From the NCBI RefSeq assembly GCF_011049865.1, contig NZ_DRGY01000049.1:19684-83683 (forward strand): a DNA stretch of 64,000 bases, read 5' to 3'. Below the pieces are notes generated by a model. The model did not search any database and was not told the origin of the DNA. It saw only the letters and a program-made list of their open reading frames with translations. This DNA comes from Marinobacter antarcticus (GTDB lineage: Bacteria > Pseudomonadota > Gammaproteobacteria > Pseudomonadales > Oleiphilaceae). The position numbers and the translations under genes were made by a program. Within the stretch, counting starts at the first letter, position 1; every line of letters starts with the position of its first letter. Shown here piece after piece: positions 23,433-62,070 of the stretch.

Positions 23433-23566
23433 AAAAAGACCGATACATGAAAGTTGCATTTAAGTACAATGCCGGCCAATCAAGGCCGTTATTAGACTTT
23501 GGTCGAATAAGGCCGACGTAAATATTGAACAGACAACAACAGAGCAACAGGCAGGGTGGATTATCA

Positions 23567-41847: not shown

Positions 41848-43998
41848 TCAGGCGAAGCGTTTTTCCTGTTCTGCGTGCTCAAGCAGCAGCGCAGGTGGAG
41901 CAAAGCGCTCGCCATACGCTTCAGCCAGTTCTCCAGCGCGCTCGGCAAAGGCTCTCACGCCGTACTGATTGATAAACTGTATGGCGCCGCCGGTCCATGG
42001 GGCATAGCCGATACCGAAGATACTGCCGACGTTGGCATCTGCCACGGTGCGCAATACGCCTTCTTCCAGGCAGCGAACCGTTTCAATCGCCTGAATGAAC
42101 AGAATGCGGTCTTTCAGATCCTGCAATTTTACGTGGCGGGCTTTGTCGCTGTTCACATAAAGCGTTTCAAGTTCTTGCCACAGGAATTTCTTGCCTTTGG
42201 CGGGGTACTCATAGAAGCCCGCACCGGCGGCCTTGCCTTTGCGGCCGTACGTATTAACCATCTGGTCAATAATCGCCTCTGCGGGGTGCGCATTCCAGGT
42301 TTCCCCTGCGGCTTCCACGTCTTTTTTGCTCTGATCGCGAACATGCTGCATCAGCGTCATGCTGACTTCATCGGAAATCGTCAAAGGGCCAACGGGCATG
42401 CCTGCCAGCAAACCTGCGTTTTCGATGCTGGAAGGATGAATACCTTCGCCCAGCATACAAATCCCCTCGTTAACGAAGGTGCCGAAAACGCGGGAGGTGA
42501 AAAAACCGCGACTGTCGTTAACAACCACAGGAATTTTGCCGATCTGCTGAACGTAATCGAAGGACCGTGCCAGGGTTTCATCCGATGTTTTTTCTCCCAC
42601 AATGATTTCCACAAGTTGCATCTTGTCGACGGGAGAAAAAAAGTGCTGCCCGATGTAATTTTCTGGCTTGGCTGATGCTTCGGCCAACTGTGTAATGGGG
42701 ATGGTGGAAGTGTTGGACGCAAAAATGCCATTTTTGACCAGCCTTGGCTCGGCTTCAGCGGTCACTTTGGCCTTCAGGTCGCTGTCTTCAAATACAGCTT
42801 CAATCACCAGATCGCAGCCTTCCAGATCTTCGGCAGAGGCGGTGGCCATAATACGGCCCAGTATCTCAGCCTTCTTCTCTTCGGTCATGCGCCCTCGACT
42901 GACCTGTTTCGTCAGCAGGTTTTCCGAGTAGCTTTTGCCTTTTTCAGCGCTTTCGACAGAAACGTCTTTAAGCACCACGTCCATGCCACGGCTGGCGGTT
43001 GAGAAGGCGATGCCGGCCCCCATCATGCCTGCGCCAAGTACGCCAACCTTTTTGAAGGTCGCTTTCTCTACGCCTTGCGGGCGGCTGCCACCCGCATTGA
43101 TGTCATTAAGCTGGAACCAGAAGGTACCGGTCATGTTCTTGGCAACCTGGCCAGTGACCAGTTCAGCAAAATAGCGGGTCTCGATCAGGCTGCCGTTGTC
43201 GAAATCAACCTGCGCGCCTTCAACGGCGGCCGAAAGAATACGCTCCGGAGCCGGGTAGCATCCTTTGGTTTTCTGTTTCAGCATGGCTGGGGCAATGGCC
43301 AGCTTCTGTGCCATGGCGGGATGATGAGGCGCGCCACCTGGCAACTTGAAGCCTTTCTTGTCCCACGGCTGCTGACACTGGGGGTTTGCTTCAATGAAGG
43401 CTTTTGCCTTGGCCATCATGTCATCGACCGAATCGGCCAGTTCATCAACAATACCGGCTTTCAGGGCCGCGGATGGGCGCACTTTTTTGCCCTCCATCAA
43501 AAACGGGAAAGCGGCTTCCAGGCCAATCATTCTGGGTAAACGCTGAGTGCCGCCGCCGCCAGGAAGTAGGCCAAGCGTGACTTCAGGCAGTCCCAGTTGA
43601 ATGCTGTTGTCATTCAGCACTATGCGATGGTGACACGCCAGGGCGATTTCGAGACCGCCGCCCAGCGCAGCGCCGTTGATGGCAGCGACCATGGGTTTGC
43701 CGCAGGTTTCCAGCGCGCGCATCTGGGCTTTCATGCCGTTGACCATGTCTTCAAAGGCCTGGGCGTCGTCGCGGGTCACCTGATGAATTTCTTTCAGGTC
43801 GCCGCCGGCAAAGAAGGTTTTCTTGGCAGAGGTAATGATAATGCCGCGAAGGTTGTCCAGGTCGCCCTGAACTTTGCTGGCGGTTTCGTTGAGGGCTTCA
43901 CGGAAGACCGCGTTCATCGTGTTCGCGGATTGGCCCGGCATGTCGATGGTGAGGGTCAGAATCTGATCCGAACCCAGTTCATAACGGATAGCACTCAT
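41848..43998 (-). CDS. trifunctional fatty-acid oxidation alpha subunit (enoyl-CoA hydratase / 3-hydroxyacyl-CoA dehydrogenase, FadJ-like)
   Basis: ECH domain GLPEVTLGLLPGGGGTQRLPRMIG, HCDH Rossmann VGVLGAGMMGAGIAFSTASRGMDVVLKD. Confidence 0.93.
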   Translation of the reverse strand: MSAIRYELGSDQILTLTIDMPGQSANTMNAVFREALNETASKVQGDLDNLRGIIITSAKKTFFAGGDLKEIHQVTRDDAQAFEDMVNGMKAQMRALETCGKPMVAAINGAALGGGLEIALACHHRIVLNDNSIQLGLPEVTLGLLPGGGGTQRLPRMIGLEAAFPFLMEGKKVRPSAALKAGIVDELADSVDDMMAKAKAFIEANPQCQQPWDKKGFKLPGGAPHHPAMAQKLAIAPAMLKQKTKGCYPAPERILSAAVEGAQVDFDNGSLIETRYFAELVTGQVAKNMTGTFWFQLNDINAGGSRPQGVEKATFKKVGVLGAGMMGAGIAFSTASRGMDVVLKDVSVESAEKGKSYSENLLTKQVSRGRMTEEKKAEILGRIMATASAEDLEGCDLVIEAVFEDSDLKAKVTAEAEPRLVKNGIFASNTSTIPITQLAEASAKPENYIGQHFFSPVDKMQLVEIIVGEKTSDETLARSFDYVQQIGKIPVVVNDSRGFFTSRVFGTFVNEGICMLGEGIHPSSIENAGLLAGMPVGPLTISDEVSMTLMQHVRDQSKKDVEAAGETWNAHPAEAIIDQMVNTYGRKGKAAGAGFYEYPAKGKKFLWQELETLYVNSDKARHVKLQDLKDRILFIQAIETVRCLEEGVLRTVADANVGSIFGIGYAPWTGGAIQFINQYGVRAFAERAGELAEAYGERFAPPALLLEHAEQEKRFA

Positions 43999-44030
43999 AA
44001 TCGGTTGTCCTTGCAGAAAAAGTGTGGGAT

Positions 44031-45239
44031 TCAGACCCGCTCAATGATGGTGGCGATGCCCATGCCGCCGCCGACGCACAGAGTCGCCAGCCCGAAGCGC
44101 AGTTCACGACGTTCAAGTTCATCCAGCAGGGTGCCCAGAATCATCGCGCCGGTGGCGCCCAGCGGATGGCCCATGGCGATTGCACCGCCGTTCACATTCA
44201 CTTTTTCATCCGGAACCGAGAGCTCCTTCTGGAAGCGCATTACCACGGAGGCAAAGGCTTCGTTCACTTCAAACAAATCAATCTGATCGATGGTCATGCC
44301 AGCCTTTGCCAGTGCCTTGCGGGTAGCGGGGGCAGGGCCGGTAAGCATAATGGTGGGGTCCGTACTGGTGACCGCCGTGGCCACGATACGGGCACGGGGT
44401 GTCAGCCCCATGGCTTTACCTTTCGCTTCGCTGCCGATCAGGATGCCGGTGGCGCCATCTACCATGCCGGAGGAATTGCCGGCGTGGTGAACGTGGTTGA
44501 TTGTTTCCACATAGTGATACTTTTCACGGGCAACTCCGTCAAAACCCATGTCTCCCATCATCTGGAAGGAAGGCTTGAGGCCTGAAAGCGACTCGACGGT
44601 GGTCTCGCCTCGTATATGCTCGTCGTGATCGAGAATGACGACGCCGTTCTGATCGGTGACCGGAATGATCGACTTGGCAAAGAAACCCTGCTTCCAGGCG
44701 TTGGCCGCTTTTTGTTGCGATTTCACGGCGAAGCCGTCGACGTCTGCGCGGCTGAAGCCTTCCAGGGTCGCAATGAGGTCGGCGCCAATGCCCTGAGGCA
44801 TGAAGCCGGTATGCAGGTTGGTTTGCGGGTCCATGGCCCAGGCGCCGCCATCGGAGCCCATAGGTATGCGCGACATGGATTCCACGCCGCCGGCAACCAC
44901 CATATCTTCCCAGCCGGAACGCACTTTCATGGCGGCCATGTTGACGGCTTCCAGGCCCGAGGCGCAGAACCGGTTCAGGGTAACGCCCGATACTTTCTCG
45001 TCCCAGTCAGCGGCGAGGGCGGCCGTTTTGGCAATGTCGGCACCCTGGTCGCCCACGGCGGTGACGCAACCCAGCACGATATCGTCTACCTGGGCGGTAT
45101 CCAGATTGTTTCTTTGTTGCAGTGCTTTAAGGACAGTGGTCAGCAAGGTAATGGGCTTGACACTGTGCAGTGAACCGTCTTTTTTCCCACGCCCTCTGGG
45201 AGTGCGGACCGCATCGAAGATATACGCCTCGGTGGTCAT
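44031..45239 (-). CDS. acetyl-CoA C-acyltransferase (thiolase, FadI-like)
   Basis: [54 protein letters not shown]. Confidence 0.95.
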
Positions 45240-56676: not shown

Positions 56677-56694
56677 ATTAGACTAAAGTCTAAT
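56677..56694. promoter_or_regulatory. 18-bp dyad, candidate GntR operator
   Basis: ATTAGACT-AA-AGTCTAAT, about 80 bp upstream of the gntR start. Confidence 0.7.
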
Positions 56695-56776
56695 ACGCAT
56701 AAAAGGCGAACAGGTATTACATAGTGAATACTGTATGCAAACGACAGCCAAGGAGTTGCGTCGTGGAGTGTGATCA

Positions 56777-57469
56777 ATGAAGAAAATCCAAGCCGAGAAA
56801 AACCTGCCTGAGCTCATATACGATTCTGTGGTCAACGCCATCGTTGAAGGTTTGCTCAAGCCGGGTGAGCGGGTGACCCAAGAGAGCCTGGCCGAGAGGC
56901 TGGATGTCTCGCGATTACCGGTGAGTCAGGCCATGCAGCGCCTTCGAGACGATGGGTTTCTTTCCAGTGTGGGACGTCGGGGTCTGATGGTTTCGCTGCT
57001 CGATGAGAATTTTGTGGCGCAGTTGTACGAGTTTCGGTGCGGGATTGACCTGATCAGTGCCGGAGTCGCTGCCCAGCGGGTCGACGCCGGCTCGCGGAAG
57101 CGTGGAGAAGACATTATTGATGAGGGGCGTGCAGCAGGAAAGGCACATGATCTTCCTGCGCTTATCGAAGCTGATATGCGCTTCCATGGCTTCATCTACG
57201 AACTGGCGGGAAACACCTTTATCCTGGATTCAATGGAGGCCCACTGGAACCACGTAAGGCGAGTTATGAGCGACATCCTTATTGCGGAAAAAAATCAGAA
57301 ACAGATCTGGGAAGAGCACGCGGCGATACTTAATGCTGTATTGGCCGGCGACGTTCGGGCTGCTGAAACGCTTGCGAGGCAACATGTGGAAACCGCTTCG
57401 ACCTGGCTTCAGCAGGAAATTCAAAGCTCTCGTGAACCTCTGAAAAGAAGCGGAAACGCGGCGAGTTAA
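56777..57469 (+). CDS. GntR-family (FCD-type) transcriptional regulator
   Basis: LIYDSVVNAIVEGLLKPGERVTQESLAERLDVSRLPVSQAMQRLRDDGFL plus FCD-like C-domain. Confidence 0.93.
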   Translation: MKKIQAEKNLPELIYDSVVNAIVEGLLKPGERVTQESLAERLDVSRLPVSQAMQRLRDDGFLSSVGRRGLMVSLLDENFVAQLYEFRCGIDLISAGVAAQRVDAGSRKRGEDIIDEGRAAGKAHDLPALIEADMRFHGFIYELAGNTFILDSMEAHWNHVRRVMSDILIAEKNQKQIWEEHAAILNAVLAGDVRAAETLARQHVETASTWLQQEIQSSREPLKRSGNAAS

Positions 57470-57484
57470 TCCAAGGAGAATAAG

Positions 57485-57910
57485 ATGCAAAACAATGACA
57501 ATAGCGCAAATGTGATTCGTGTAATGTTGGCGAAAATCGGTCTGGATGGTCATGACCGAGGCATAAAAGTTGTTGCACGTGCGTTGCGGGATGCTGGCAT
57601 GGACGTGGTTTATACCGGATTGCATCGCACGCCGGAGGAAGTTGTGGATGCCGCTATTCAGGAGGATGTGGATATTCTGGGGATCAGTCTGCTTTCGGGT
57701 GCGCACATGCACATTTTCCCCAAGGTGCTGGAGCTCCTGAAAGCCAAGGAAGCAGACGACATGATTGTCGCAGGTGGCGGTGTCATCCCGGACGACGATG
57801 TCGAAGAGCTCTATCAGATGGGCGTTCACAAGATTCTTCTCCAGGACACTCCCCCTCAGGAAGTCATTGATTCGTTCCGTCAATTAGTGGCAGACCGTGG
57901 TGCCCGATAG
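57485..57910 (+). CDS. cobalamin-binding small subunit of acyl-CoA mutase (HcmB-like)
   Basis: VMLAKIGLDGHDRGIKVVARALRDAGMDVVYTGLHRTPEEVVDAAIQEDVDILGISLLSGAHM (DxHxxG cobalamin motif). Confidence 0.92.
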   Translation: MQNNDNSANVIRVMLAKIGLDGHDRGIKVVARALRDAGMDVVYTGLHRTPEEVVDAAIQEDVDILGISLLSGAHMHIFPKVLELLKAKEADDMIVAGGGVIPDDDVEELYQMGVHKILLQDTPPQEVIDSFRQLVADRGAR

Positions 57911-57986
57911 ATACGGCACCAGGGCGGTCGGGCGCTCATGACAGGTTTCCTCAGATGACAACCAATAATAATATCAGGAGTCTCCG

Positions 57987-59408
57987 ATGGAAGATTGGAA
58001 TTTTCCTCCCAGCTACAACAAAGATTACTTTCCTGATTCTGACAGCCCTTACTGGTTTCGGGAGCGGGAAACGATGGATCCTGCAAAGCGCGATGAACTA
58101 ATTGTTGCGCGCATACGGGATGTAATGGCCTATGCTTACGATCACTCTCCGTTTTACCAACGCAAATGGGACGATGCCGGTGTAAAGGCAGATGACATTC
58201 GTACCCTTGCAGACTTCGAACGGGTTCCTGTGGTCACTAAGCAGGAGCTTCGCGACTCCCAGGCAAGTAATCCGCCATTCGGGGATTATCTTTGCTGCCC
58301 TCAAAGCGATATTCATCATATCCATGGCACGTCTGGCACAACCGGTCGGCCTACCGCTTTTGGTATCTCCCGGGGTGATTGGGAAACCATTGCCAATAAT
58401 CATGCCCGGATCATGTGGGGTATGGGCCTGCGGCCGGGGGATACGGTGTTTGTGGCCGCTATTTTGAGTCTCTATATGGGATCCTGGGGCGCGTTGATCG
58501 GTGCTGAGCGGCTGGGCTGCAAAGCGTTCCCTTTCGGCGCCGGCGCCCCGGGGATGACGGCGCGAGCGGTTACTTGGCTGGCCATGATGAAGCCCGCCGG
58601 CCTTTACTCCACACCCTCCTATGCGCTGAGGCTGGCGGAAGTCGCCCGAGAGGAAGGGATTGATCCCCGGGAATTTGGTATCAAAGTGCTGTTCTTTTCA
58701 GGCGAGCCGGGCGGTTCCATCCCATCTATCCGTGACAAGATTCAGGATATTTACGGTGCGAAAGTGGTTGATTGCGGAACCATGGCTGAGTTGACGCCAT
58801 GGATGCATGCCTCCGGCAGCGCGGACACCGAGGGTATGCTCCTTTGGCAGGACATCGTCTATACAGAAGTGGCGGACCCGCATACTAATTGTCGTGTTCC
58901 TTATGGTGGGCAGGGCACACCAATTTATACCCATCTCGAGCGCACTTCCCAGCCGATGATCCGCATGGTCTCCGGCGATCTGACCCATTGGGTGATGGAA
59001 GACAACCCGTGCGGCCGCACCTATCCGAGATTGCCAAAAGGCATTTACGGGCGGATCGACGACATGTTCCAGATCCGTGGCGAAAACATATATCCCAGTG
59101 CCATCGCTGAAATCCTGGAAGGCCTTGTTGGCTATGGCGGCGAGCATCGGATTGTTGTTTCACGCGGTGGCTCGATGGACGAACTGGCCGTACAGGCAGA
59201 ATTTGATCATGAGACAGCCAGTAAAGGCCCCGATGCAGTCAAGGCGTTGTTAGGGCGGGTGGAGGCTGAGTGCAGTCGCGTGTTGGGTGTTCGTGCAAGG
59301 GTTGTGATGGTCGAGCCGGACACCTTTCCGCGTACCGACTTCAAGGCCCAGCGGGTGATTGATGACCGGGATCTTTACCAGAGCCTTAACCAGAAGCGAG
59401 GAGATTAA
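57987..59408 (+). CDS. phenylacetate-CoA-ligase-family acyl-CoA ligase
   Basis: HHIHGTSGTTGRPTAFGISRGDWE, GDLTHWVMEDNPCGRTYPRLPKGIYGRIDDMFQIRGENIYPSAIAEIL. Confidence 0.92.
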   Translation: MEDWNFPPSYNKDYFPDSDSPYWFRERETMDPAKRDELIVARIRDVMAYAYDHSPFYQRKWDDAGVKADDIRTLADFERVPVVTKQELRDSQASNPPFGDYLCCPQSDIHHIHGTSGTTGRPTAFGISRGDWETIANNHARIMWGMGLRPGDTVFVAAILSLYMGSWGALIGAERLGCKAFPFGAGAPGMTARAVTWLAMMKPAGLYSTPSYALRLAEVAREEGIDPREFGIKVLFFSGEPGGSIPSIRDKIQDIYGAKVVDCGTMAELTPWMHASGSADTEGMLLWQDIVYTEVADPHTNCRVPYGGQGTPIYTHLERTSQPMIRMVSGDLTHWVMEDNPCGRTYPRLPKGIYGRIDDMFQIRGENIYPSAIAEILEGLVGYGGEHRIVVSRGGSMDELAVQAEFDHETASKGPDAVKALLGRVEAECSRVLGVRARVVMVEPDTFPRTDFKAQRVIDDRDLYQSLNQKRGD

Positions 59409-60386
59409 ATGATTAGTCGCACATCCTCTATGAAGCTTGCTGAGCGGGTGCGGGAAGGACATCTTCGTGCCATCGCCAGGCTTATTACCCGGGTTGAGAG
59501 TCGCGACCCTGAGGTGCGCCAAGCCATGGCTGAACTCTACAAAAGCACCGGCCGCGCCCATGTGGTAGGCATAACCGGTGTGCCGGGGGCAGGCAAGTCG
59601 ACGCTCGTCGCAGAGCTGGTCCAGGAGTACCGGGCGAGTGGCCGCACAGTCGGTATTGTTGCTATAGATCCTTCCAGCCCTTTCTCCGGTGGGGCGATCC
59701 TCGGTGATCGCATTCGCATGGGCGAACTGGTTTCTGATCCGGGTGTCTTCATTCGTAGCATGTCAACCCGGGGAACCTTGGGTGGCCTGGCCAGGCCGGC
59801 TTTGGAAGCAGTCGATCTGTTGGATGCAGGCGGATTCGATGTGGTCCTGATTGAGACGGTCGGCGTGGGTCAGGATGAAGTCGATATCGTGCGTGCGGCG
59901 CACACCACCGTAGTTGTCAACGCGCCAGGCCTGGGCGACGACGTTCAGGCCATCAAGGCAGGGGTGCTTGAGATTGCCGACATTCATGTGGTGAGTAAGG
60001 CGGACCGGCCCGACTCCAACAAAACTATTCAGGAACTCAAGGTCATGCTTGCGATGAGCCTTGAGCCGGGCAAGGACATATGGCGGGTGCCGGTAGTGCC
60101 GACCAGTTCTGAAAAACACAGCGGTTTCGGTGAGCTGATGTCGGCAATTGATCGCCACGCGGTGCATCTGGAGCATAGCGGAGAAATCACCGAACGTCGT
60201 CGCCAGATTGCGTTAACCCGAGTGGTGAAAGTTGCCGAGGAGATCGTCCGGGACAATTTTGTACGTGACAGCAGGTCACAAACCGAAGAGTTGCTCAAAA
60301 TGGTTACTCAGCGCGAAATGGATCCCCATGGAGCGGCAGTGACTTTGCTAAAGGCCATGAAGGAGAAGATTCATGAAGCACACTGA
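59409..60386 (+). CDS. meaB: MeaB/ArgK-type G-protein chaperone of B12-dependent mutase
   Basis: VVGITGVPGAGKSTLVAELVQEYRASGRTVGIVAIDPSSPFSGGAILGDRIRMG. Confidence 0.95.
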   Translation: MISRTSSMKLAERVREGHLRAIARLITRVESRDPEVRQAMAELYKSTGRAHVVGITGVPGAGKSTLVAELVQEYRASGRTVGIVAIDPSSPFSGGAILGDRIRMGELVSDPGVFIRSMSTRGTLGGLARPALEAVDLLDAGGFDVVLIETVGVGQDEVDIVRAAHTTVVVNAPGLGDDVQAIKAGVLEIADIHVVSKADRPDSNKTIQELKVMLAMSLEPGKDIWRVPVVPTSSEKHSGFGELMSAIDRHAVHLEHSGEITERRRQIALTRVVKVAEEIVRDNFVRDSRSQTEELLKMVTQREMDPHGAAVTLLKAMKEKIHEAH

Positions 60387-62070
60387 TCAATATGACCCCG
60401 CTGCACTCAAGCACATTGAGAAAGAGTTTGACGAGTGGGAAAAGAATGAAGTGTCGTCTTTCATCAAGCGCGCTCCGGAGAGTCAGTCAGAGTACACCAC
60501 TGCTTCCGGGATGCCGACGAAACGAACCTATACGCCACTCGACCTCAAAAATACGTCCTTTGAAGACATTGGTTTGCCCGGGCAATACCCGTTCACCCGC
60601 GGGCCTTACCCAACCATGTATCGGGGTCGAAACTGGACAATGCGCCAGATAGCCGGCTTCGGTACGGCGAGGGAAACCAACGGGCGGTTCAAATACCTCA
60701 TCGCTCAGGGCCAGACCGGGCTTTCGATCGACTTCGATATGCCTACCCTGATGGGATACGACTCCAGCCACAGCATGAGTCAGGGCGAGGTCGGCCGCGA
60801 AGGCGTTGCCATCGACACGCTGGCTGATATGGAGGAGTTGTTCGACGATATTGATTTGACGAAAATCTCAGTATCCATGACGATCAATCCGTCGGCATGG
60901 ATACTCTACGCCATGTACATCGCCTTGGCGCAGAGTCGCGGCTACGACCTCAATGATCTGTCGGGTACCATTCAGAACGACATTCTCAAGGAGTATATTG
61001 CTCAAAAGGAATGGATATTCCCGGTGCGGCCGTCGGTTCGCCTGGTCCGTGACTGTATCCAGTACGGATCCGAGAGCATGAAGCGGTACAACGCCATCAA
61101 TATTTCGGGGTATCACATATCGGAAGCCGGCTCGACCGCTGTTCAGGAAGTGGCGTACACCATGGCAACCACCATGGAGTACGTTCAAACGGCAATTGAT
61201 GCAGGGGTTGATGTCAATGAGTTCGGGCCCCGGCTTTCCTTCTTCTTCGTGAGCCAGGCAGACTTCTTTGAAGAAATTGCCAAGTTTCGCGCGGCCAGGC
61301 GGATATACGCCAAGATCATGCGCGAAAAATTCGGTGCCACGAACCCCGAGGCCAGCCGGCTGCGCTTCCACGCACAGACTGCGGCAGCGACCCTGACCAA
61401 ACCACAGTATACGATCAACCCGATTCGCACCGCGCTGCAGGCTCTGTCTGCTGTGCTGGGCGGAGCGCAGTCGCTGCACACCAACGGTATGGATGAAGCC
61501 TTTGCCATTCCTACTGAGGAGGCGATGCGGATTGCCCTGCGCACTCAGCAAATCATCGCCCATGAGACCAATGTCACTCAGGTTGTGGATCCGCTGGGCG
61601 GCTCCTACTTTGTCGAAAGCCTCACCGATGAGATTGAGCGGGAAGTATGGAAAATTCTTGATGAGGTGGAAGAGCTCGGTGGCACTTTGCAATGTATCGA
61701 CGACGGCTACTTCCAGAGAGGCATATCCGATTCCGCATATGATTTCGCGTTACGCAAAGCCAGCGGAGAAAGACCGGTTATCGGTGTGAATATGTTCGTG
61801 CAAAATGAAGAGGATGTTAAAATCGAAATCCATCCTCACGATCCCGAAACCGAGCGTCGGCAGATTGATCGCCTGAACAGGGTCAAGAATGGTCGCGATG
61901 AGGAAAAAGTTCAAACGATGCTCAAACAATTGATAGAGCAGGCCGAAGACGAATCGGTAAATCTTATGCCGATCACTATTGAGTTGGTGAGAGAGGGTGC
62001 CTCCATGGGGGATATCGTTGAAACGCTCAAAGGTATATGGGGAACCTATCGCGAGAAACCCGTAATTTGA
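60373..62070 (+). CDS. large subunit of coenzyme-B12-dependent acyl-CoA mutase, HcmA-like (2-hydroxyisobutyryl-CoA mutase type)
   Basis: YPFTRGPYPTMYRGRNWTMRQIAGFGTARETNGRFKYLIAQGQTGLSIDFDMPTLMGYDSSHSMSQGEVG. Ile in TMRQ-I-AGF and Asp in LSI-D-FD. Confidence 0.88.
   Translation: MKHTDQYDPAALKHIEKEFDEWEKNEVSSFIKRAPESQSEYTTASGMPTKRTYTPLDLKNTSFEDIGLPGQYPFTRGPYPTMYRGRNWTMRQIAGFGTARETNGRFKYLIAQGQTGLSIDFDMPTLMGYDSSHSMSQGEVGREGVAIDTLADMEELFDDIDLTKISVSMTINPSAWILYAMYIALAQSRGYDLNDLSGTIQNDILKEYIAQKEWIFPVRPSVRLVRDCIQYGSESMKRYNAINISGYHISEAGSTAVQEVAYTMATTMEYVQTAIDAGVDVNEFGPRLSFFFVSQADFFEEIAKFRAARRIYAKIMREKFGATNPEASRLRFHAQTAAATLTKPQYTINPIRTALQALSAVLGGAQSLHTNGMDEAFAIPTEEAMRIALRTQQIIAHETNVTQVVDPLGGSYFVESLTDEIEREVWKILDEVEELGGTLQCIDDGYFQRGISDSAYDFALRKASGERPVIGVNMFVQNEEDVKIEIHPHDPETERRQIDRLNRVKNGRDEEKVQTMLKQLIEQAEDESVNLMPITIELVREGASMGDIVETLKGIWGTYREKPVI

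What the first reader, a model, noticed from the sequence alone, without database searches (positions are those of the whole stretch)
56677..62070. Cluster for a 2-hydroxyisobutyryl-CoA-mutase-type B12 enzyme, not a canonical methylmalonyl-CoA mutase
Seen: a compact same-strand cluster of GntR regulator, stand-alone cobalamin-binding subunit, PaaK-type CoA ligase, MeaB GTPase and mutase large subunit, with meaB and mutase ORFs overlapping by 14 nt. Known: canonical MCM has Tyr in TIRQ-Y-AGF and Ala in GLSV-A-FD. 2-hydroxyisobutyryl-CoA mutase (HcmAB of Aquincola tertiaricarbonis) has Ile (Ile90) and Asp (Asp117) there. This ORF reads TMRQ-I-AGFG and GLSI-D-FD, with the same 27-residue spacing. 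The small subunit also closely resembles what I recall of HcmB. Inference: it isomerises a branched hydroxyacyl-CoA (2-hydroxyisobutyryl to 3-hydroxybutyryl-CoA or similar), and automated annotation as MCM would be wrong. The PaaK-type ligase may define the acid substrate and could differ from known HCM loci.
Basis: partly seen in the sequence, partly recalled or inferred. Interest (0 to 1): 0.78.

Follow-up and report, generated by a model that had tools for sequence, protein, structure and literature searches.

The report
2-hydroxyisobutyrate mutase operon in Marinobacter
A marine bacterium of the genus Marinobacter carries the complete, already described set of genes for breaking down 2-hydroxyisobutyrate with a vitamin B12 enzyme; the gene set is known, and what is mildly new is that its relatives carry it at one fixed chromosomal site, often next to genes that supply the vitamin.

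Summary
On the + strand lie a GntR/FCD regulator, hcmB, hcl, meaH and hcmA (56777-62070); meaH and hcmA overlap by 14 nt. A perfect inverted repeat at 56677-56694 is the probable operator. HcmA is 69% identical to Aquincola HcmA (PDB 4r3u), has its Ile, Asp and Gln at three diagnostic positions, and lies in a fully supported HcmA clade; placement with MCM or ICM-like mutases is rejected. HcmB is 68% identical to the 4r3u small subunit.

The suggestion that the ligase might differ from known loci fails: it is a 2-hydroxyisobutyryl-CoA ligase (HCL) ortholog, 62% identical to 6hdw. The whole layout, GntR gene included, is published (PMC7176365), so this is a new member of a known kind.

Added context: 16 of 124 Marinobacter species carry the operon, all beside the same CoA pyrophosphatase gene; in the 13 with both flanks on one contig it sits before purT. 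In 103 non-carriers that gap is only 728-869 bp. In 13 of 16 carriers a PduO adenosyltransferase gene follows hcmA, and ten also have B12 import genes there. In the window genome these are elsewhere. The natural source of 2-hydroxyisobutyrate is unknown. No activity was measured.

The parts
56677..56694 (.). inverted repeat ATTAGACT-AA-AGTCTAAT, probable operator of the GntR regulator
   Evidence: 0 expected by chance in the window; only exact TTAGACnnnnGTCTAA site in the genome; recognisable upstream of gntR in 12 related Marinobacter loci, a perfect 18-bp palindrome in L115 and L117
56777..57469 (+). GntR/FCD-type transcriptional regulator
   Evidence: Pfam FCD 95.7 bits and GntR 48 bits; 88-93% identical in 12 related Marinobacter loci, always upstream of hcmB
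57485..57910 (+). hcmB, cobalamin-binding small subunit of 2-hydroxyisobutyryl-CoA mutase
   Evidence: best solved relative 4r3u_C, 194 bits, 68% identity, DxHxxG motif DGHDRG at residue 21; Pfam B12-binding
57987..59408 (+). hcl, 2-hydroxyisobutyryl-CoA ligase
   Evidence: 6hdw 702 bits against 237 for the best PaaK; 62% identity to HCL
59409..60386 (+). meaH, MeaB-family GTPase of the mutase (G-protein chaperone)
   Evidence: TIGR00750 345.6 bits over cut-off 240.75; Pfam MeaB 306.5 bits; P-loop GVPGAGKS
60373..62070 (+). hcmA, large subunit of 2-hydroxyisobutyryl-CoA mutase (Ile93, Asp120, Gln211, His248)
   Evidence: 4r3u_A 878 bits, 69% identity, I/D/Q signature, inside the HcmA clade at 100/100 support

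Best explanation
This is a complete 2-hydroxyisobutyrate (2-HIBA) degradation operon of the HcmAB type in a Marinobacter species. HCL makes 2-hydroxyisobutyryl-CoA from 2-HIBA, ATP and CoA. HcmAB with adenosylcobalamin moves the CoA-carbonyl group by a radical rearrangement to give (S)-3-hydroxybutyryl-CoA; Asp120 is expected to hold the hydroxyl group and Ile93 to make room for the branched carbon. MeaH protects the mutase and helps load its cofactor. Ordinary 3-hydroxyacyl-CoA dehydrogenase and thiolase, one pair of which lies at 41848-45239 in the same window, then yield acetyl-CoA. The GntR regulator probably binds the repeat at 56677-56694 and lifts repression when 2-HIBA or its CoA ester is present. 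Shown: gene content, orthology, residue identities, phylogeny, fixed genomic site, conservation of the repeat. Inferred: reaction, substrate, stereochemistry, regulation.
For: Four of the five proteins have a best match in the characterised system or its protein class: 4r3u_A, 4r3u_C, 6hdw and the MeaB family. The I/D/Q signature is shared with HcmA and differs from Y/A/R (MCM) and F/A/Q (ICM-like) relatives. The I/D/Q sequences form one clade at 100/100 with the three diagnostic positions masked; AU tests reject joining the Marinobacter sequences to MCM (p 4e-6) or to the F/A/Q group (p 8e-7). The same hcmB-hcl-meaH-hcmA order is found in Alpha- and Betaproteobacteria, Eremiobacterota, Terriglobia, Mycobacterium and Conexibacter. 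It is the only PF01642 mutase in the genome. Both adenosyltransferase families and a B12 import/synthesis block are present elsewhere in the genome. A FadJ-type protein and a thiolase are in the window. Published operon layout: PMC7176365.
Against: No activity, growth or expression data. No upstream source of 2-HIBA was identified, and I did not search for one gene by gene. HcmA is recalled (paper not held) to act weakly on pivalyl- and isovaleryl-CoA, so the true substrate could be another branched acid.
Confidence: 0.93

Rival explanations
1. The enzyme pair acts in nature on another branched (hydroxy)acyl-CoA, for example 2-hydroxy-2-methylbutyryl-CoA, pivalyl-CoA or a plankton-derived tertiary hydroxy acid, with 2-HIBA only a model substrate.
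For: Carriers of the cluster come mostly from pristine habitats with no known 2-HIBA source, and authors in the field suggest an unidentified natural acid (PMC7176365). Between the flanking genes of the Marinobacter carriers read, the only other genes named are for B12 supply, none for tert-butyl ether degradation.
Against: Both HcmA and HCL are full-length orthologs of enzymes shown to use 2-HIBA and its CoA ester, with the mutase specificity residues kept.
Confidence: 0.2
2. An isobutyryl-CoA or methylmalonyl-CoA mutase that happens to resemble HcmA.
For: Database models name it only as methylmalonyl-CoA mutase.
Against: Residues I/D/Q rather than F/A/Q or Y/A/R; AU tests reject both placements; the HCL ortholog and the conserved operon order.
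Confidence: 0.02
3. The operon serves acetone assimilation: a thiamine-dependent lyase makes 2-hydroxyisobutyryl-CoA from acetone and a C1 unit, as proposed for sulfate reducers.
For: Such a pathway with a 2-hydroxyisobutyryl-CoA mutase is proposed elsewhere (PMC7176365, PMC7888143).
Against: The four TPP_enzyme_N proteins of this genome match acetolactate synthase or pyruvate-oxidase-like models, none a 2-hydroxyacyl-CoA lyase. The ligase in the operon points to the free acid as entry.
Confidence: 0.03

Closest known systems
HcmAB-HCL-MeaH operon of Aquincola tertiaricarbonis L108 / Methylibium petroleiphilum PM1
   Same: The same four enzymes and an upstream GntR regulator gene; HcmA 69%, HcmB 68%, HCL 62% identical; the same active-site Ile/Asp/Gln
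   Different: Host is a marine gammaproteobacterium; the gene order of the Aquincola operon was not compared; no fuel-oxygenate genes were recognised at the site in the related Marinobacter loci read
RcmAB of Kyrpidia tusciae
   Same: Same reaction class, also found with hcl
   Different: Published as only distantly related to HcmAB and preferring the (R) product (PMC7176365); the window protein belongs to the HcmA clade
Methylmalonyl-CoA mutase (human MMUT, M. tuberculosis MutB)
   Same: Family PF01642 and the active-site His
   Different: 41-42% identity, Y/A/R instead of I/D/Q, separate clade
Isobutyryl-CoA-mutase-like F/A/Q proteins with separate small subunit
   Same: Split architecture, Gln in place of the carboxylate-binding Arg
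   Different: Phe/Ala instead of Ile/Asp, mostly 49-55% identity, no HCL gene found in the loci read

Membership tests
2-hydroxyisobutyryl-CoA mutase, HcmAB type | Ile and Asp at positions 90 and 117 of HcmA | tested here: met
   Ile93 and Asp120 align with them
2-hydroxyisobutyryl-CoA mutase, HcmAB type | Phylogenetic placement with HcmA, outside MCM and ICM-like clades | tested here: met
   One clade at 100/100; alternatives rejected by AU tests
2-hydroxyisobutyryl-CoA mutase, HcmAB type | Separate B12-binding small subunit with DxHxxG | tested here: met
   57485-57910, DGHDRG, 68% identical to the 4r3u small subunit
2-hydroxyisobutyryl-CoA mutase, HcmAB type | Operon with hcl, meaH and a GntR regulator gene upstream | tested here: met
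   layout in PMC7176365
[quoted passage not shown]
   needs purified protein
2-hydroxyisobutyryl-CoA ligase (HCL) | Closest to characterised HCL, not PaaK | tested here: met
   702 against 237 bits
Methylmalonyl-CoA mutase | Tyr and Arg contacting the substrate carboxylate | tested here: not met
   Ile93 and Gln211
RcmAB ((R)-specific mutase) | Closer to K. tusciae RcmA than to HcmA | not tested

The most novel reading that the evidence does not exclude
In Marinobacter the hcm operon is a site-specific module that travels with its own coenzyme B12 supply genes, and it marks use of an unidentified natural tertiary hydroxy acid in the sea, possibly from phytoplankton.
Probability: 0.25. Interest if true: 0.5.

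Novelty: new member of a known kind. Interest (0 to 1): 0.25.

Why it matters
It corrects a likely 'methylmalonyl-CoA mutase' label: this mutase is the only PF01642 protein found in the genome. It adds a set of mostly well-assembled marine genomes in which the natural role and source of 2-hydroxyisobutyrate could be tested. The link with B12 supply genes at the same site is a testable ecological clue. The enzymology and operon layout themselves are known.

Tried and rejected
The idea that the ligase points to a different acid was dropped. An acetone entry through a thiamine-dependent lyase was checked through the enzyme family and found unsupported. Rfam search of the window found only a tRNA, no riboswitch in the operon; cobalamin riboswitches lie in the B12 blocks of relatives and in the window genome's own block. 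The promoter and terminator scan gave nothing above chance. The primary HCM papers (PMC4392272, PMC4551191, PMC3346121, PMC5244315) are not held, so mutant data on Ile90/Asp117 are from memory. The literature search for Marinobacter together with 2-hydroxyisobutyrate found nothing relevant. No structure prediction was run: at 69% identity to a solved complex it would add little.

Full report
What is there. Five genes run in one direction: GntR/FCD regulator (56777-57469), hcmB (57485-57910), hcl (57987-59408), meaH (59409-60386) and hcmA (60373-62070), with a 14-nt meaH/hcmA overlap. The gaps are 15 nt between gntR and hcmB, 76 nt between hcmB and hcl, and none between hcl and meaH, so one transcript is likely (inference). 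The host is a Marinobacter: the nearest named genome is M. guineae, with HcmA 96% identical, and the search tool places it in a genus set of 124 genomes.

Identity of the enzymes. The large subunit matches HcmA of PDB 4r3u with 878 bits against 429 for human MCM and is 69% identical to it. The small subunit matches the 4r3u small subunit (194 bits; 68%). The ligase matches the 2-hydroxyisobutyryl-CoA synthetase 6hdw with 702 bits against 237 for the best phenylacetate-CoA ligase (62%). The GTPase belongs to the MeaB family. At the three positions that separate subfamilies the window has Ile93, Asp120 and Gln211, as HcmA does. Among the relatives aligned (redundant rows included), 42 share I/D/Q, 57 have F/A/Q (as in isobutyryl-CoA mutases, from memory) and 3 have Y/A/R, which include both MCM references.

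Phylogeny. In a 90-row quick tree the I/D/Q rows form one clade at SH-aLRT 100. In a careful 35-row tree with the three diagnostic positions masked they are one side of a branch at 100/100, and AU tests reject grouping the Marinobacter sequences with MCM (p 4e-6) or with the F/A/Q rows (p 8e-7).

Conserved layout. hcmB-hcl-meaH-hcmA in this order recurs in Bosea, Methylobacterium, Burkholderiales, Eremiobacterota, Terriglobia, Mycobacterium and Conexibacter. PMC7176365 states that hcl is in operon-like organisation with hcmAB or rcmAB and meaH in many strains, usually with a GntR gene upstream, and that carriers mostly come from pristine habitats including marine dinoflagellates. The finding is therefore a further member of a published system.

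Regulation. A perfect 8-2-8 inverted repeat, ATTAGACT-AA-AGTCTAAT, lies at 56677-56694, 82 bp before the gntR start. None is expected by chance in the window and the genome has no other exact copy of its 16-bp core. It is recognisable at the same place in 12 related loci, with changes in the spacer and at one or two arm positions; in L115 and L117 it is a full 18-bp palindrome. A single-target, self-controlling regulator is the simplest reading (inference).

Genomic site. Seventeen of 124 genomes match HcmA. Fifteen are full length at 94% identity or more (the window genome included), one (G086) is cut off by a contig end at 95% identity, and one (G096) is only 46% identical and has Y/A/R. In the 13 carriers with both flanks on one contig, the CoA pyrophosphatase and purT genes are 5.9-20.9 kb apart with the operon between them; in 103 non-carriers they are 728-869 bp apart. 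The other three carriers (G004, G086, G111) have the operon next to the same CoA pyrophosphatase gene on a contig that ends before purT. In two of the three non-carriers read (L110, L112) a hexapeptide-repeat protein gene of the gamma-carbonic-anhydrase kind fills the gap; the window genome keeps only relatives of 39% identity or less elsewhere. So the operon occupies one fixed site and is patchy in the genus, which fits either gain by replacement or repeated loss.

B12 supply. In 13 of 16 carriers a PduO-type adenosyltransferase gene follows hcmA; the exceptions are the window genome, G033, and G086, whose contig ends there. Ten carriers also have genes for B12 import (btuB, btuF, btuC, btuD or most of these) at the site, and eight of the ten also have cobalamin synthesis genes there (cobD, cobB, cobQ, cobN or bluB, in varying sets). 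A cobalamin riboswitch precedes btuB in the relatives examined. In the window genome the corresponding block with its own riboswitch is on contig C14, and PduO is on C7. CobN is present in 9 of 16 carriers and 20 of 108 others (Fisher p 0.002); the genomes are related, so this is only suggestive.

Mechanism. From the characterised system: 2-HIBA is activated by HCL, rearranged by HcmAB with adenosylcobalamin to (S)-3-hydroxybutyryl-CoA, and degraded by beta-oxidation enzymes, of which one FadJ-type protein and one thiolase are at 41848-45239. Asp at position 117 is recalled as the residue that fixes the hydroxyl group and so the (S)-stereospecificity; that paper could not be read here. All catalytic steps are inferred from orthology.

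Verdict. Observation confirmed; HcmAB assignment very likely right; the ligase suggestion wrong; novelty low. The unexplained part is the natural source of 2-HIBA for a marine bacterium.

Noticed in passing
L103 6266-17096, also L100, L102, L104, L105, L108, L109, L116 (related Marinobacter): Directly after hcmA, relatives carry a B12 supply island: pduO, cobD, riboswitch-btuB, in most cobN, then btuF, btuC, btuD, cobB, cobQ and bluB.
   Followed up: partly
L113 6874-12541 (G096): One Marinobacter lacks the HcmA-type mutase but has a Y/A/R (MCM-type) split mutase with a MeaB-like GTPase, an enoyl-CoA hydratase family protein, a family III CoA-transferase and PduO, at another site.
   Followed up: partly
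L110 1851-2378, L112 674-1207: A hexapeptide-repeat gene fills the empty site in two non-carriers read; no close ortholog was found in the window genome.
   Followed up: partly
window 23491-23508: A one-mismatch copy of the operator-like repeat (ATTAGACTTTGGTCGAAT).
   Followed up: no
L011 3095-6300: A second, distant (34%) mutase with small subunit and GTPase genes lies just upstream of the hcm genes in an uncultured proteobacterium.
   Followed up: no
L003: A metagenome bin titled Halomonas sp. SAT58 carries a Marinobacter-type locus on a contig of the same length as one in G074 of the Marinobacter genus set; the title is probably a misassignment.
   Followed up: partly
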